In this document: positions 3,163 through 20,243 of the stretch, in pieces
Layout of the letters: every line of letters begins with the position of its first letter
How positions within the stretch are numbered: the stretch's first letter is position 1
DNA from: an uncultured SAR86 cluster bacterium
GTDB taxonomy: Bacteria; Pseudomonadota; Gammaproteobacteria; Magnimaribacterales; D2472
Direction: 5' to 3'
DNA length: 53,016 nt
NCBI GenBank assembly: GCA_902515155.1
Contig: CABXTT010000005.1
Location: 1 to 53,016, forward strand
The notes under the pieces: generated by a model
What the model was told of the DNA's origin: nothing
The model's input: only the letters and a program-made list of their open reading frames with translations
Database searches by the model: none
Made by a program: the position numbers and the translations under genes

Positions 3163-4542
3163 ATGGAATTTATGACTGAAATATCTTCAATACAAAATAT
3201 TATTTATATTATTTCATCGATTTTATTTATCACAGGAATTAAAATGCTTGGTAAAGAAGATACTGCTGTAAAAGGTAATTTTCTGTCAGCCTTGGCAATG
3301 TTTATTGCTGTAAGCGTCACCCTCATAGATGTTATTAACCCTATGGTTTTGTTATCTGGCATTGCCGTTGGAGCTGTTATAGGCTCTGCAATAGCTCTGC
3401 GTGTAAAAATGACTTCGATACCAGAAATGGTTGCATTATTTAATGGTTTTGGAGGAGCAGCTACTTTCTTAATTGCATGGTCAGAGTTCAATTCAATACC
3501 CGATTCCCTTTTTCAGCATATTTTAATAATGATAACAATATACATTGGTGGAGTTACCTTTACTGGAAGTTTAATAGCTTATGGAAAACTTTCTGAGAAG
3601 ATTTCTATAGCAAAAACTTCAATAATTACAAAAGTATTCACAACCTTATTTTATGCATCTTTGGTTTTTTTAATTTTTGCAATAATACAACCTGTCACAC
3701 CATCAGTAGAATTTAATTTCTTTACTATTTTATTAGCTTTAACCCTTCTTGGAGGGATTGGTTTTGTTCTTCCAATAGGCGGTGGTGACATGCCTGTCGT
3801 GATTTCCCTATTAAACTCATTCTCAGGAATTGCTGCTGCTTTTGCAGGACTACTGTTATTAAATAACGTTTTAATTGTTGCAGGCTCTCTTGTTGGAGCC
3901 AGTGGTTTAATACTTACTATTATTATGGCAAAGGCCATGAATAGGTCTATTAATAATATTTTATTTGTTGGTTACGCTAGTTCGTCATCTAGCACTTCAT
4001 CTGAAGAGCAAGGTGAGGTTAGTCCTATAAGCGTTTCTGATGCATATTTGATTCTTGAGAGTGCTAGTTCTGTTTTAATCATCCCTGGTTATGGAATGGC
4101 TGTAGCTCAAGCGCAACATGTTGTAAGAGAGCTAGGTGAGTTACTTGAGGAAAATGGAACAGAGGTCAAATATGGTATTCATCCTGTGGCTGGAAGAATG
4201 CCAGGACATATGAATGTCTTATTGGCTGAAGCTAATGTCCCATATGATGTATTAGCTGAACCTGATGATGTAAACCCAACAATGGATGTGGTAGATGTAG
4301 CAGTTGTAATAGGTGCAAATGATGTTGTTAACCCATCTGCAACTGAAGAGCCTGGTAGTCCTATTTACGGCATGCCTATTATTGAAGTACATAATGCAAA
4401 AACAGTATTTGTTTTAAAAAGATCAATGTCATCTGGTTTTGCTGGCGTTCAAAATCCACTATTTTTCAAACAAAACACAAGAATGTTATTTGGAGATGCA
4501 AAAGAGTCTATTGGCGGCTTAGTTTCCGAATTTAAGGAATAA
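3163..4542 (+). CDS. pntB: NAD(P) transhydrogenase subunit beta
   Basis: IGGGDMPVVISLLNSFSGIAAAFAG; VIIPGYGMAVAQAQHVVRELGELLEENG; GRMPGHMNVLLAEANVPYD. Confidence 0.95.
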   Translation: MEFMTEISSIQNIIYIISSILFITGIKMLGKEDTAVKGNFLSALAMFIAVSVTLIDVINPMVLLSGIAVGAVIGSAIALRVKMTSIPEMVALFNGFGGAATFLIAWSEFNSIPDSLFQHILIMITIYIGGVTFTGSLIAYGKLSEKISIAKTSIITKVFTTLFYASLVFLIFAIIQPVTPSVEFNFFTILLALTLLGGIGFVLPIGGGDMPVVISLLNSFSGIAAAFAGLLLLNNVLIVAGSLVGASGLILTIIMAKAMNRSINNILFVGYASSSSSTSSEEQGEVSPISVSDAYLILESASSVLIIPGYGMAVAQAQHVVRELGELLEENGTEVKYGIHPVAGRMPGHMNVLLAEANVPYDVLAEPDDVNPTMDVVDVAVVIGANDVVNPSATEEPGSPIYGMPIIEVHNAKTVFVLKRSMSSGFAGVQNPLFFKQNTRMLFGDAKESIGGLVSEFKE

Positions 4543-4610
4543 TTCTCTTATAAAATATGTTAAAATTACCTTAAATTTAAGGACGCATTTTTATCCAAAA
4601 AACATAGCAT

Positions 4611-7154
4611 ATGAGTGATTTTGCAAAAGAAATACTTTCAGTAAATATTGAAGATGAGCTCAAGCAGTCTTATCTTAGTTATGCATTGAGCGTTATCCAT
4701 GGAAGAGCCCTTCCTGACATTAGAGATGGACTAAAACCAGTTCATAGAAGAATTTTATATGCAATGTATGACCTAAAAAATTCTTATAACAAGCCTTATA
4801 AAAAATCTGCAAGAGTGGTTGGTGATGTAATTGGTAAATATCATCCTCATGGCGATAGTGCCGTATATGATGCCATGGTAAGAATGGCTCAAGATTTCTC
4901 AATGAGGTACCCAATTGTAGAGGGACAAGGTAATTTTGGATCTATTGATGGCGATCCACCTGCTGCAATGAGATATACAGAAGTAAGAATGGCAAAGATT
5001 ACCGATCAGATGTATGGAGATATTGAAAAGGACACCGTTTCATATTCTCCAAATTATGATGGAAGTGAATTTATTCCTGATGTTTTGCCTACAAAAATTC
5101 CGAATCTTTTAGTTAATGGGTCTTCAGGAATTGCTGTTGGAATGGCTACAAATATTCCTCCTCACAATCTTACTGAAGTTTTGAACGCCAGTATCAATTT
5201 AATAAATAATCCTAAAATTTCTATTGATGATTTAATAAAAGATATTTCTGGTCCTGACTTTCCAACTGGTGGAACCATTGACGGTAAGGCTGGTATATAT
5301 GAGGCATATAAAACTGGAAGAGGAATTATTCATACAAGATCAAACACATCCATAGAAGAAGATGAGAAATCAGGAAAACAGTCTCTAATAGTTAACGAAA
5401 TTCCTTATATGGTGAATAAGGCAAGAATGCTTGAAAAAATAGCTGAACTAGTAAAAGAAAAGAAAATTGAAGGCATTACTGAAATAAGAGATGAGTCTGA
5501 CAAGGATGGCCTAAGGGTTGTAATCGAAGTAAGAAAAGGAGACTCAGTAGAAGTTCTTGAAAATAATCTATTCGCACAAACTCAGCTTGAGCAATCTTTT
5601 GGAATAAACTTTACAGTTTTAGTTGACGGTCAGCCAAAGGAAGTCAATTTAAAAGAAATGCTAGAGGCTTTTGTTAAACATAGAAAAGATATTATTACTA
5701 AGAGAACTAAATATGATCTAAAAAAAGCAAAAGAAAGAGGTCATATAGTTGAAGGTTTAATGGTTGCAATTGCAAATATAGATGAAGTGATAACCATAAT
5801 AAAGAAATCTAAAGATCCAAAGATTGCCGCTGAAGCTTTATGCAAAAAATCATGGAAAGCAGGTCCTGTAGAAGCAATTCTTAAGAAAGTTGGAAATGAT
5901 GCATGTAAACCAAAAGGCTTAAGTAAGGAACTTGGCATAAAGGGCAAGAAATACAAACTGTCATCCGATCAAGCTAAGGCAATTTTAGAATTAAGATTAG
6001 GACGATTGACTGGATTAGAACAGGACAACCTCAGTAATGAATTTGCAGATATAGTTTCAAAAATTATTGATTTACAAAAGATACTTGATGACAAAGAAAC
6101 TTTAAAAAATTTAATGATTGATGAATTAGATGAAGTTAAGAAAAATTTTGGAGACGAGAGAAGAACTCTAATCAATGATACAAGAAGGGGTATAACCAAC
6201 GAAGATCTTATCCCAGAAGAGATGCGAGTCCTCACAGTCTCAAGAAGCGGTTATGCAAAAACTCAACCCCTGGATGAATATAGAGAACAAAGAAGAGGTG
6301 GCCAAGGAAAAGCTGCAGCTGCTGTCAAAGAAGAGGACTTAATACAGAATTTGTATGTTCTTAGTAGCCATATGCAGATTCTTTGTTTTACAACTAAGGG
6401 TAAGGTTTTTTGGTTAAAAGTTTATGAAATCCCTGTAGCATCAAGAACGTCTAAAGGAAGGCCGCTAGTAAATATGCTTAACCTTGATGACGATGAGTCT
6501 GTAAGTGATATTTTACCGGTTAGTGAATTTTCAGAAAATGAATACATATTTATGGCTACAAAAAAGGGGACTACTAAAAAAACTAACCTAAGTTTATTCT
6601 CTAAAAAATATAAATCTGGTATTAAAGCAATTAATTTAGATGAAGATGATAAGTTAATTGGTACTGCTATTACTTCAGGTGAAGAAGAAATACTTTTGGC
6701 TTCTTCAGCCGGAAAACTTATTAGATTTAATGAGTCGCATGTAAGGCCTATGGGAAGAACTGCCAGAGGGGTTCGAGGAATAAGATTAAAAAAAGATGAA
6801 AAATTAATATCTCTTATGGTTGGCGATCCATCTAAGACAATACTTTGTGTCTCTGAAAATGGATTTGGTAAAAAAACTAAGTTAGATGATTTTCCATCTC
6901 ATAATAGAGGTGGCCAAGGTGTTATTTCAATGAAAACAAGTGATAGAAATGGCTCAATGGTATCAGCTGCATTAGTTGAAGATGAAGACGGTATTATGCT
7001 TATAAGTGACAAAGGAACGATGATTAGAACATCTGTTTCACAAGTTCCGACTTTAAGCAGAAATACTCAAGGTGTTAAAATAATTTCTCCGAAAGATGGG
7101 GAAAAACTTATAGAGTGCGTCACTATACCTAACGAAGAAGATCAAGAGGATTAA
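4611..7154 (+). CDS. gyrA: DNA gyrase subunit A
   Basis: [90 protein letters not shown]-terminal GyrA box-like QRRGGQGK. Confidence 0.97.
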
Positions 7155-18591: not shown

Positions 18592-19131
18592 ATGGCAAAT
18601 TTCATTAATCTACTCACATTTTCAAGAATATTTCTTGCAGCTGTAATATTTCTCTTACTTATGTCATCAGATAGCTACGCAATGGCACTCATTTTATTTT
18701 TTGTAGCTGGTATTACTGATTACTTTGATGGATATCTTGCTAGAAAACATAATGCAGTTTCTAAGTTGGGTGAGATTTTAGATCCTATTGCTGACAAAAT
18801 TTTAATTCTTTTTTTATTGTTTGCCTTAGCAATCAATTTATCAAGTTACTCGATAGGCTTTATTGGAGCATTAATTATCACCAGAGAAATTTGGGTAGGT
18901 GCTCTTAGGGACATGAATGCTAGAGATGGTAGAAGTGATGCAACTAAAGTAACCTTTCTTGCAAAAATAAAAACTACAATTCAGCTATTTACGATCTCTA
19001 TTTATCTTTTAGGTCTAGCAATCAACAATATGTTGATAATAGTTATGGGAGATATTTTTTTATTTATTTCATTATTTATAACTTTATATACTGGCTTTCT
19101 TTATACGCTAAGTTCTTTTAAACCTAGATAA
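18592..19131 (+). CDS. pgsA: CDP-diacylglycerol--glycerol-3-phosphate 3-phosphatidyltransferase
   Basis: CDP-alcohol phosphotransferase motif DYFDGYLARKHNAVSKLGEILDPIADK; follows uvrC. Confidence 0.94.
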   Translation: MANFINLLTFSRIFLAAVIFLLLMSSDSYAMALILFFVAGITDYFDGYLARKHNAVSKLGEILDPIADKILILFLLFALAINLSSYSIGFIGALIITREIWVGALRDMNARDGRSDATKVTFLAKIKTTIQLFTISIYLLGLAINNMLIIVMGDIFLFISLFITLYTGFLYTLSSFKPR

Positions 19132-19141
19132 CTTATTAAAA

Positions 19142-19912
19142 ATGAAAATAGTAATTGTTAGCGGTGGTTTTGATCCAATTCATTCTGGTCATATTGAGTA
19201 TTTTAAATCTGCAAAAGAATATGGAGATAAGCTTTTAGTTGCATTAAATAGCGATAATTGGCTTGAAAAGAAAAAAGGAAAGTTTTTTATGTCTTTTAAA
19301 GAAAGAAAGGCAATAGTTAATTCTATTCGATATGTAGATAAAGTTATTGATTTTGAAGATGATAAAAAGGGATCTTGTATAAATGCTTTAGAAAAAATAA
19401 AAGAACAATATCCTAATGATGAATTAATTTTTGCAAATGGTGGTGATAGAAACAATAAAAATATTCCTGAAATGTCAGTATCAGGTATTAGTTTTGTTTT
19501 TTCTGTAGGAGGAGACAACAAAATTAATTCATCATCATTGATTTTAAGTAAATGGCAGAATTACTTTGAAGAAAGACAATGGGGTGCTTTTTTTAATTTA
19601 TTCCAAACTCAAAACATAAAAGTAAAAGAGCTTATTGTAAGTCCGGGAAAGGCTATGAGCTTCCAAAGACATTTTAAAAGAAATGAAATATGGCTAATCA
19701 GTGAAGGTTCATGCGAGGTTTCATATGCAAATAAAAATTCAATTAAATCAGTTAGTAAAATAATATTAAATCAATTTGATCACTATATAGTTCCAATTGA
19801 GAATTGGCATCAAATTAGCAACCCATTCAAGAAAAAAGTTCATATAATCGAAATTCAATATGGTGAAGAGTGTATTGAGGAAGATATTGAAAGGATCAAT
19901 AATCTATCTTAA
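19142..19912 (+). CDS. Fusion of cytidylyltransferase-like domain with C-terminal cupin (mannose-6-P isomerase type II-like)
   Basis: N-term MKIVIVSGGFDPIHSGHIEYFKSAKEYGDKLLVALNSDNW (HxGH nucleotidyltransferase); C-term VKELIVSPGKAMSFQRHFKRNEIWLISEGSCEV...DHYIVPIENWHQISNPFKKKVHIIEIQYGEECIEEDIERI resembles the ManC/MPI-II cupin. Confidence 0.85.
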   Translation: MKIVIVSGGFDPIHSGHIEYFKSAKEYGDKLLVALNSDNWLEKKKGKFFMSFKERKAIVNSIRYVDKVIDFEDDKKGSCINALEKIKEQYPNDELIFANGGDRNNKNIPEMSVSGISFVFSVGGDNKINSSSLILSKWQNYFEERQWGAFFNLFQTQNIKVKELIVSPGKAMSFQRHFKRNEIWLISEGSCEVSYANKNSIKSVSKIILNQFDHYIVPIENWHQISNPFKKKVHIIEIQYGEECIEEDIERINNLS

Positions 19913-20156: not shown

Positions 20157-20243
20157 GCCCGGGTGGTGGAATTGGTAGACACAAGGGACTTAAAATCCCT
20201 CGCTAGAAATAGCGTGCCGGTTCAAGTCCGGCTCCGGGTACCA
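20157..20243 (+). tRNA. tRNA-Leu (anticodon TAA), class II with long variable arm, CCA encoded
   Basis: GCCCGGGTGGTGGAATTGGTAGACACAAGGGACTTAAAATCCCTCGCTAGAAATAGCGTGCCGGTTCAAGTCCGGCTCCGGGTACCA, closely resembles E. coli leuZ. Confidence 0.97.

What the first reader, a model, noticed from the sequence alone, without database searches (positions are those of the whole stretch)
19142..19912. Cytidylyltransferase-cupin fusion gene located where E. coli carries glyW
One ORF joins an HxGH nucleotidyltransferase (GGFDPIHSGHIEYF, RfaE2/TagD-like) to a cupin resembling the C-terminal domain of ManC/type II phosphomannose isomerase. The combination suggests a two-step activity (sugar or polyol phosphate isomerisation/binding plus nucleotide activation), feeding the glycan island that follows. 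It sits between pgsA and the tRNA-Cys/tRNA-Leu pair, a position taken by glyW in E. coli pgsA-glyW-cysT-leuZ.
Basis: partly seen in the sequence, partly recalled or inferred. Interest (0 to 1): 0.6.

Follow-up and report, generated by a model that had tools for sequence, protein, structure and literature searches.

The report
Two-domain sugar-activating enzyme of SAR86
A marine bacterium carries a single gene that joins a sugar-phosphate isomerase-like domain to an unrelated nucleotide-attaching domain; gene-presence patterns suggest it stands in for the standard enzyme that makes GDP-mannose, which would be an unreported way of making a common building block of cell-surface sugars.

Summary
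The ORF is real: 19142-19912(+), 256 aa, an HxGH nucleotidyltransferase (NT, Pfam CTP_transf_like) plus a cupin matching the C-terminal domain of ManC/type II phosphomannose isomerase. The window is from a SAR86 genome. The fusion was intact in 71 of 121 SAR86-order genomes, and also in one Pelagibacteraceae genome and in marine T4-like phage contigs. It was not found elsewhere in a class-wide and a phylum-wide sample.

Its position is incidental. The gene sits at eight or more unrelated chromosomal spots, so "feeding the glycan island that follows" is not shown. tRNA-Gly is missing at pgsA with or without it.

Co-occurrence points to a function. No genome with the fusion carries ManC (0/71; ManC in 12/50 others). 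Seventeen fusion-bearing, ManC-less genomes carry GDP-mannose 4,6-dehydratase, which needs GDP-mannose. In one near-complete genome every NTP-transferase gene I could detect is assigned elsewhere, ManC and ManA are undetected, and the mutase is present. The missing steps are isomerisation and guanylylation, the fusion's two domain types. Heptose and CDP-glycerol substrates fit poorly.

Best reading: a non-orthologous ManC analogue making GDP-mannose (about 0.4). Counter-evidence: four genomes lost the cupin but kept the NT, and an HxGH guanylyltransferase would be unusual. No activity is shown.

The parts
19142..19912 (+). fusion gene, 256 aa: HxGH nucleotidyltransferase + PMI-type cupin
   Evidence: 80 distinct full-length homologues
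19142..19561 (+). NT domain, residues 1-140 (Pfam stretch 6-102; motifs GGFDPxHSGH, NSDxWLxxKKG, FANGGDR, KxNSSS)
   Evidence: Pfam PF01467; motif residues largely invariant in 80 fusions; fold match to TagD 2b7l, TMt 0.83, 30% identity
19562..19909 (+). cupin domain, residues 141-256 (Q175, H177, E182, H223 at cupin metal-ligand positions; R180; IEIQYGxxxxEEDIER)
   Evidence: Pfam PF01050; Q/H/E/H and R180 invariant in 80/80; aligned to PDB 7zvm; fold match to 7zvm, TMt 0.89, 1.6 A; 28% identity to a SAR86 ManC cupin
18592..19131 (+). pgsA, upstream neighbour (context only)
   Evidence: identified by position and conserved order with uvrC and tRNA-Cys, as in E. coli
19962..20035 (+). tRNA-Cys(GCA), downstream neighbour (context only)
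20157..20243 (+). tRNA-Leu(UAA) (context only)
4543..4610 (.). pntB/gyrA junction without the fusion; in other SAR86 genomes the fusion, or its NT alone, lies at this junction
   Evidence: pntB 3163-4542 and gyrA 4611-7154; occupied in L008, L009, L012, L013, L081, L082, L095, L096, L098, L100, L101, L106, L134

Best explanation
A bifunctional nucleotide-sugar enzyme that works like ManC but is built from a different nucleotidyltransferase. The cupin interconverts a ketose phosphate and an aldose phosphate (most likely fructose-6-P and mannose-6-P). A separate phosphomannomutase makes mannose-1-P, and the HxGH domain joins it to a nucleotide (most likely giving GDP-mannose). The architecture, the conservation and the gene-presence pattern are shown; both activities, the substrate and the nucleotide are inferred.
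For: Architecture and conserved active-site positions in both domains. Fold matches: cupin to a phosphomannose isomerase (7zvm, TMt 0.89), NT to TagD (TMt 0.83). ManC is absent from all 71 genomes with the fusion and present in 12 of the 50 without it (Fisher p 1e-5, not corrected for ancestry). Four genera hold both fusion species and a ManC species, never both in one genome (genus-stratified p 0.0095). Seventeen genomes have GMD (GDP-mannose 4,6-dehydratase) and the fusion but no ManC; 5 have GMD and ManC; 1 (G094) has GMD and neither. In G074 (97% complete, one contig, every base read) the NTP-transferase-type genes found are RmlA, GalU, MurU (next to AmgK), GlmU, IspD and a KdsB-like gene; E. 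coli manA has no hit, E. coli cpsB hits only the fusion, and a PgmG-type mutase and GMD (527 bits, cut-off 415) are present. G023 has adjacent GMD and GDP-fucose synthase, a PgmG-type mutase, the fusion and no ManC.
Against: No biochemistry. Four genomes keep the NT without the cupin (three at pntB-gyrA, one at metK-ahcY), so the cupin is dispensable there; the NT-only copies are under purifying selection and those genomes have no listed GMD or ManC. Most fusion genomes (54 of 71) have no GMD. To my knowledge characterised HxGH enzymes of this group use CTP or ATP, so GTP use would be unusual. The genomes are mostly incomplete, and ManA was searched for only in G074 and 800 kb of G023.
Confidence: 0.4

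Rival explanations
1. It activates a different sugar or polyol phosphate (with CTP, ATP or another NTP) for a surface glycan or lipid; the cupin is an isomerase for that sugar. The exclusion with ManC reflects lineage history or alternative surface chemistries.
For: By profile score the NT lies nearest RfaE2 (66 bits) and TagD (64 bits) and, in the PDB, ethanolamine-phosphate and glycerol-3-phosphate cytidylyltransferases. Most fusion genomes lack GMD. The NT is kept without the cupin in some genomes. Some copies lie in glycan clusters beside galU, UDP-glucose dehydrogenase or NeuB-like genes.
Against: Scores are far below the RfaE2 (181.5) and TagD (165.4) cut-offs. PF04464 CDP-glycerol transferases: 0 of 45 genomes. 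It leaves the GDP-mannose supply of the 17 GMD+fusion genomes unexplained.
Confidence: 0.35
2. A heptose enzyme: the cupin replaces GmhA (sedoheptulose-7-P to D-glycero-D-manno-heptose-7-P) and the NT is an HldE-type heptose-1-P nucleotidyltransferase.
For: The NT is RfaE2-like and shares its GGD region; the heptose step is chemically a one-carbon-longer analogue of the PMI reaction (general knowledge).
Against: HldE-type heptose kinase passes its cut-off in only 3 of 28 fusion genomes tested, and those 3 have it beside the fusion; all 6 tested genomes of SAR86 family f2, which lack the fusion, have HldE. GmhA-like genes, all below cut-off, occur in 8 of 28.
Confidence: 0.1
3. The NT is the only catalytic part; the cupin is a sugar-binding, regulatory or stabilising domain without isomerase activity.
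For: The cupin was lost at two sites while the NT stayed under purifying selection (pN 0.05-0.11 against pS 0.40-0.74). Standalone NTs occur in cyanophages and in another marine bacterial family.
Against: The four putative metal-ligand positions and R180 are invariant in 80/80 fusions, and the cupin shows low pN relative to pS in the pairs tested, which a pure linker domain would not need.
Confidence: 0.15

Closest known systems
ManC/AlgA/CpsB, bifunctional mannose-1-P guanylyltransferase/phosphomannose isomerase (TIGR01479)
   Same: C-terminal PMI-type cupin, order NT then cupin, proposed steps 1 and 3 of GDP-mannose synthesis; found in the SAR86 genomes that lack the fusion
   Different: N-terminal domain is an unrelated HxGH fold instead of the GT-A-like pyrophosphorylase; about half the length (256 against 465-479 aa)
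RfaE2 / HldE C-terminal domain (TIGR02199)
   Same: HxGH nucleotidyltransferase, similar layout including the GGD region
   Different: 66 bits against a cut-off of 181.5; no kinase domain; C-terminal STT-type motif reads NSSS; fused to a cupin
TagD, glycerol-3-phosphate cytidylyltransferase (TIGR01518; PDB 1coz, 2b7l)
   Same: best fold match of the NT (TMt 0.83, 30% identity)
   Different: 63.5 bits against a cut-off of 165.4; no CDP-glycerol polymerase family in the genomes tested
Standalone cupin phosphomannose isomerase (PDB 7zvm, 7zvy, Thermococcus)
   Same: cupin fold, TMt 0.83-0.89; ligand positions align
   Different: first ligand position is Gln instead of His; fused to an NT; about 12-13% identity
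PHROG 7878 phage nucleotidyltransferase
   Same: same NT family (E 2e-32 for the window protein)
   Different: the PHROG model covers the NT only; no cupin

Membership tests
CTP_transf_like superfamily (PF01467) | profile score above the curated cut-off | tested here: met
   54.4 bits against 21
CTP_transf_like superfamily (PF01467) | HxGH motif | tested here: met
   H14, G16 and H17 invariant in 80/80 fusions
MannoseP_isomer cupin (PF01050) | profile score above the curated cut-off | tested here: met
   64.1 bits against 23.6
MannoseP_isomer cupin (PF01050) | conserved metal-ligand positions Q/H/E/H | tested here: met
   Q175, H177, E182, H223 in 80/80; alignment to 7zvm; same residues in a SAR86 ManC. 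That they bind metal is inferred.
ManC / GMP-PMI (TIGR01479) | N-terminal GT-A-like pyrophosphorylase domain | tested here: not met
   only profile positions 361-463 of 467 match the window protein
ManC / GMP-PMI (TIGR01479) | mannose-1-P guanylyltransferase and PMI activity | not testable with these tools
   needs purified protein
RfaE2 / HldE adenylyltransferase (TIGR02199) | score above the equivalog cut-off | tested here: not met
   66.3 bits against 181.5
RfaE2 / HldE adenylyltransferase (TIGR02199) | heptose kinase available in the same genome | tested here: not met
   TIGR02198 over cut-off in 3 of 28 fusion genomes; none in G000, which is 75% complete
TagD (TIGR01518) | score above the equivalog cut-off | tested here: not met
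   63.5 bits against 165.4
TagD (TIGR01518) | CDP-glycerol glycerophosphotransferase (PF04464) in the genome | tested here: not met
   0 of 45 SAR86 genomes

The most novel reading that the evidence does not exclude
The fusion is a second, independently built GDP-mannose enzyme: an HxGH-fold mannose-1-phosphate guanylyltransferase joined to a PMI cupin that replaces ManC one-for-one in SAR86, with relatives in a Pelagibacteraceae genome and marine T4-like phages.
Probability: 0.35. Interest if true: 0.7.

Novelty: new variant of a known kind. Interest (0 to 1): 0.5.

Why it matters
SAR86 is an abundant surface-ocean lineage that the 2013 genome announcement in the library (PMC3569297) describes as resisting cultivation. 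Seventeen of its sampled genomes contain GDP-mannose-using genes without the standard enzyme that makes GDP-mannose. If the fusion fills that gap, it is a non-orthologous replacement of ManC and would correct phage and bacterial annotations that now read 'heptose 7-phosphate kinase/adenylyltransferase'. The cupin-less natural variants give a ready comparison of what the second domain does. If it activates another sugar, the same assays would reveal it.

Tried and rejected
Rejected: that the cupin's metal site is broken because the HxH of some cupins reads HxK. The ligand positions implied by the cupin motif and by alignment to 7zvm are 175, 177, 182 and 223, and position 179 is not a ligand (it is Arg in a genuine ManC, L055). 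Rejected: that the gene belongs to the glycan island downstream (variable position). Rejected: that it displaced glyW. Weakened: heptose and CDP-glycerol roles. Considered and not pursued: phosphonate activation (one PDB hit, 5x3d). Literature searches for the domain pair or for SAR86 cytidylyltransferases found no paper on it; the library lacks most subscription journals. Plasmid records hold only ManC-type partial matches.

Full report
WHAT IS THERE. The ORF 19142..19912 (+) encodes 256 aa. Residues 6-102 match Pfam CTP_transf_like and residues 145-253 match MannoseP_isomer, both well above cut-off. Against equivalog models, the NT scores 66 bits for RfaE2 (cut-off 181.5) and 64 for TagD (cut-off 165.4), so it belongs to neither; the cupin matches positions 361-463 of the 467-position ManC model, and the ManC pyrophosphorylase domain is absent. 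AlphaFold2 gives mean pLDDT 90.5. By fold, the NT resembles TagD (2b7l, TMt 0.83, 30% identity) and the cupin resembles Thermococcus phosphomannose isomerase (7zvm, TMt 0.89, 1.6 A). The top-ranked overall Foldseek hit, CapF, aligns with rmsd 17-19 A and is not a meaningful whole-protein match.

ACTIVE-SITE POSITIONS. In 80 distinct fusion sequences the NT motifs (G8, G9, F10, D11, P12, H14, G16, H17; N36; K45; R55; N99-G-G-D-R103; K127; S130-S132) are invariant. So are cupin residues S173, Q175, H177, R180, E182, G189, H223, N227 and E237. The cupin consensus G(x)5HxH(x)4E(x)6G puts the metal ligands at 175, 177, 182 and 223. The profile alignment to 7zvm agrees, and ManC of a SAR86 relative has the same residues. 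Gln, His, Glu and His are, from general knowledge, also the zinc ligands of type I phosphomannose isomerase. Metal binding itself was not tested.

DISTRIBUTION. The contig that holds the window is from a SAR86 genome (G000, 75% complete; relatives are named SAR86). Of 121 SAR86-order genomes, 71 carry the fusion (intact or truncated by a contig end or a split reading), 4 carry the NT alone, and 2 carry copies with many stops. Outside the order the fusion was found in one Pelagibacteraceae genome (L026, 44%) and in marine viral contigs (44-48%). A class-wide sample of 369 genomes and a phylum-wide sample of 299 gave no further fusion at the thresholds used; a sample can miss rare carriers. Another marine family with 0.7-1.2 Mb genomes has a standalone NT and, in some genomes, a standalone cupin elsewhere. 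Cyanophage S-SSM7 has an NT-only gene between gp43 and uvsX, and the viral contigs with the fusion carry RecA/UvsX-like and gp32-like genes beside it.

POSITION IS INCIDENTAL. The gene lies between pgsA and tRNA-Cys (window and others), pntB and gyrA, pyrF or pgi and uvrC, metK and ahcY, beside a MATE gene, beside galU, UDP-glucose dehydrogenase or EPS transferase genes, between two other conserved genes, and between tRNA-Leu and a UDP-sugar dehydrogenase gene. The window itself shows pntB (3163-4542) and gyrA (4611-7154) with nothing between. A tree of the NT needs at least 26 changes of position label for 12 labels, although many of its forks are unresolved. The fusion therefore cannot be assigned to the island downstream by position. 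tRNA-Gly is absent from the pgsA-tRNA-Cys interval also where the fusion is elsewhere (L004-L006, L011); the near-complete genome G074 has tRNA-Gly(GCC) and (TCC) at other places. For G000 itself this was not testable.

NATURAL CUPIN LOSS. At pntB-gyrA three genomes (L081, L082, L134) and at metK-ahcY one genome (L083) have an NT of 145-154 aa followed directly by the next gene. The three form one clade and the fourth lies apart, so the cupin was lost at least twice, or the reverse if the root lies elsewhere. The NT-only copies show pN 0.05-0.11 against pS 0.40-0.74, i.e. purifying selection. The NT is thus useful alone in some backgrounds.

WHICH SUBSTRATE. Heptose: TIGR02198 (HldE kinase) passes its cut-off in 3 of 28 fusion genomes tested and in all 6 tested genomes of family f2, which lack the fusion; GmhA-like genes (all below cut-off) are in 8 of 28. 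CDP-glycerol: PF04464 in 0 of 45. Mannose: full-length ManC is in 12 genomes, none with the fusion. The unstratified Fisher p is 1e-5, and 0.003 without the listed f2 genomes. Shared ancestry inflates these values; stratified by the four genera that contain both states, the probability of no overlap is 0.0095. GDP-mannose 4,6-dehydratase occurs in 23 genomes: 17 with the fusion and no ManC, 5 with ManC, 1 (G094, 82% complete) with neither.

READING ONE GENOME THROUGH. G074 is one contig of 1,194,046 bases, 97% complete, with the fusion and GMD. Its NTP-transferase-type genes, found by motif, seeds and a small HMM, are RmlA, GalU, MurU (with AmgK beside it), GlmU, IspD and a KdsB-like gene. E. 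coli manA finds nothing, E. coli cpsB finds only the fusion's cupin, and a PgmG-type phosphoglucomutase/phosphomannomutase is present. The same seeds find ManC readily in ManC-bearing genomes. So in G074 the steps without a gene are fructose-6-P to mannose-6-P and mannose-1-P to GDP-mannose, matching the fusion's two domain types. RmlA and GalU assignments rest on sequence similarity, and substrate promiscuity of one of them is not excluded. In G023 (no ManC in the whole-genome search) GMD and GDP-fucose synthase are adjacent and a PgmG-type mutase is present; 800 of 1326 kb was read, with no ManA found there and one weak NTP-transferase-like ORF left unassigned.

CONCLUSION. Shown: architecture, conservation, distribution, variable position, cupin loss, ManC exclusion, GMD co-occurrence. 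Inferred: isomerase activity, nucleotidyl transfer, mannose as substrate, GTP as donor. The best-supported reading is a non-orthologous analogue of ManC. Against it stand the cupin-less variants, the many fusion genomes without GMD, and the rarity (to my knowledge) of GTP use in HxGH enzymes. Confidence 0.4.

Noticed in passing
L030-L037, L040 (viral contigs): Marine T4-like phage contigs carry the fusion beside uvsX-like and gp32-like genes; a GT8-type glycosyltransferase gene follows in L033 and its relatives. A possible phage-borne sugar-activation gene.
   Followed up: partly
L029:3983-4447 (Synechococcus phage S-SSM7): Standalone NT between gp43 and uvsX, annotated as heptose 7-phosphate kinase/adenylyltransferase although it has no kinase domain length (154 aa).
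   Followed up: partly
G003, G007, L028: Copies of the fusion with several in-frame stops or frame breaks, apparently decaying.
   Followed up: no
L071-L075 and L077-L080 (family of G261): A second marine family with standalone NT and, in some genomes, a separate standalone cupin; ManC-type genes occur in other members, none of which has the NT (too few genomes for a test).
   Followed up: partly
window 3163-4542 / 4611-7154: pntB directly followed by gyrA: the unoccupied form of a site that holds the fusion in other SAR86 genomes.
   Followed up: yes
window 20289-49241: Long glycan biosynthesis island starting after tRNA-Leu with a Wzz/Wzc-like chain-length gene and TviB-type dehydrogenase (611 bits, cut-off 592) and ending near an EPS sugar transferase gene; no GMD was found in G000 (75% complete).
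   Followed up: partly
L004-L006 (e.g. L005:4517-4891): A small ectoine-synthase-like cupin gene lies directly upstream of the fusion at the pyrF-uvrC position.
   Followed up: no
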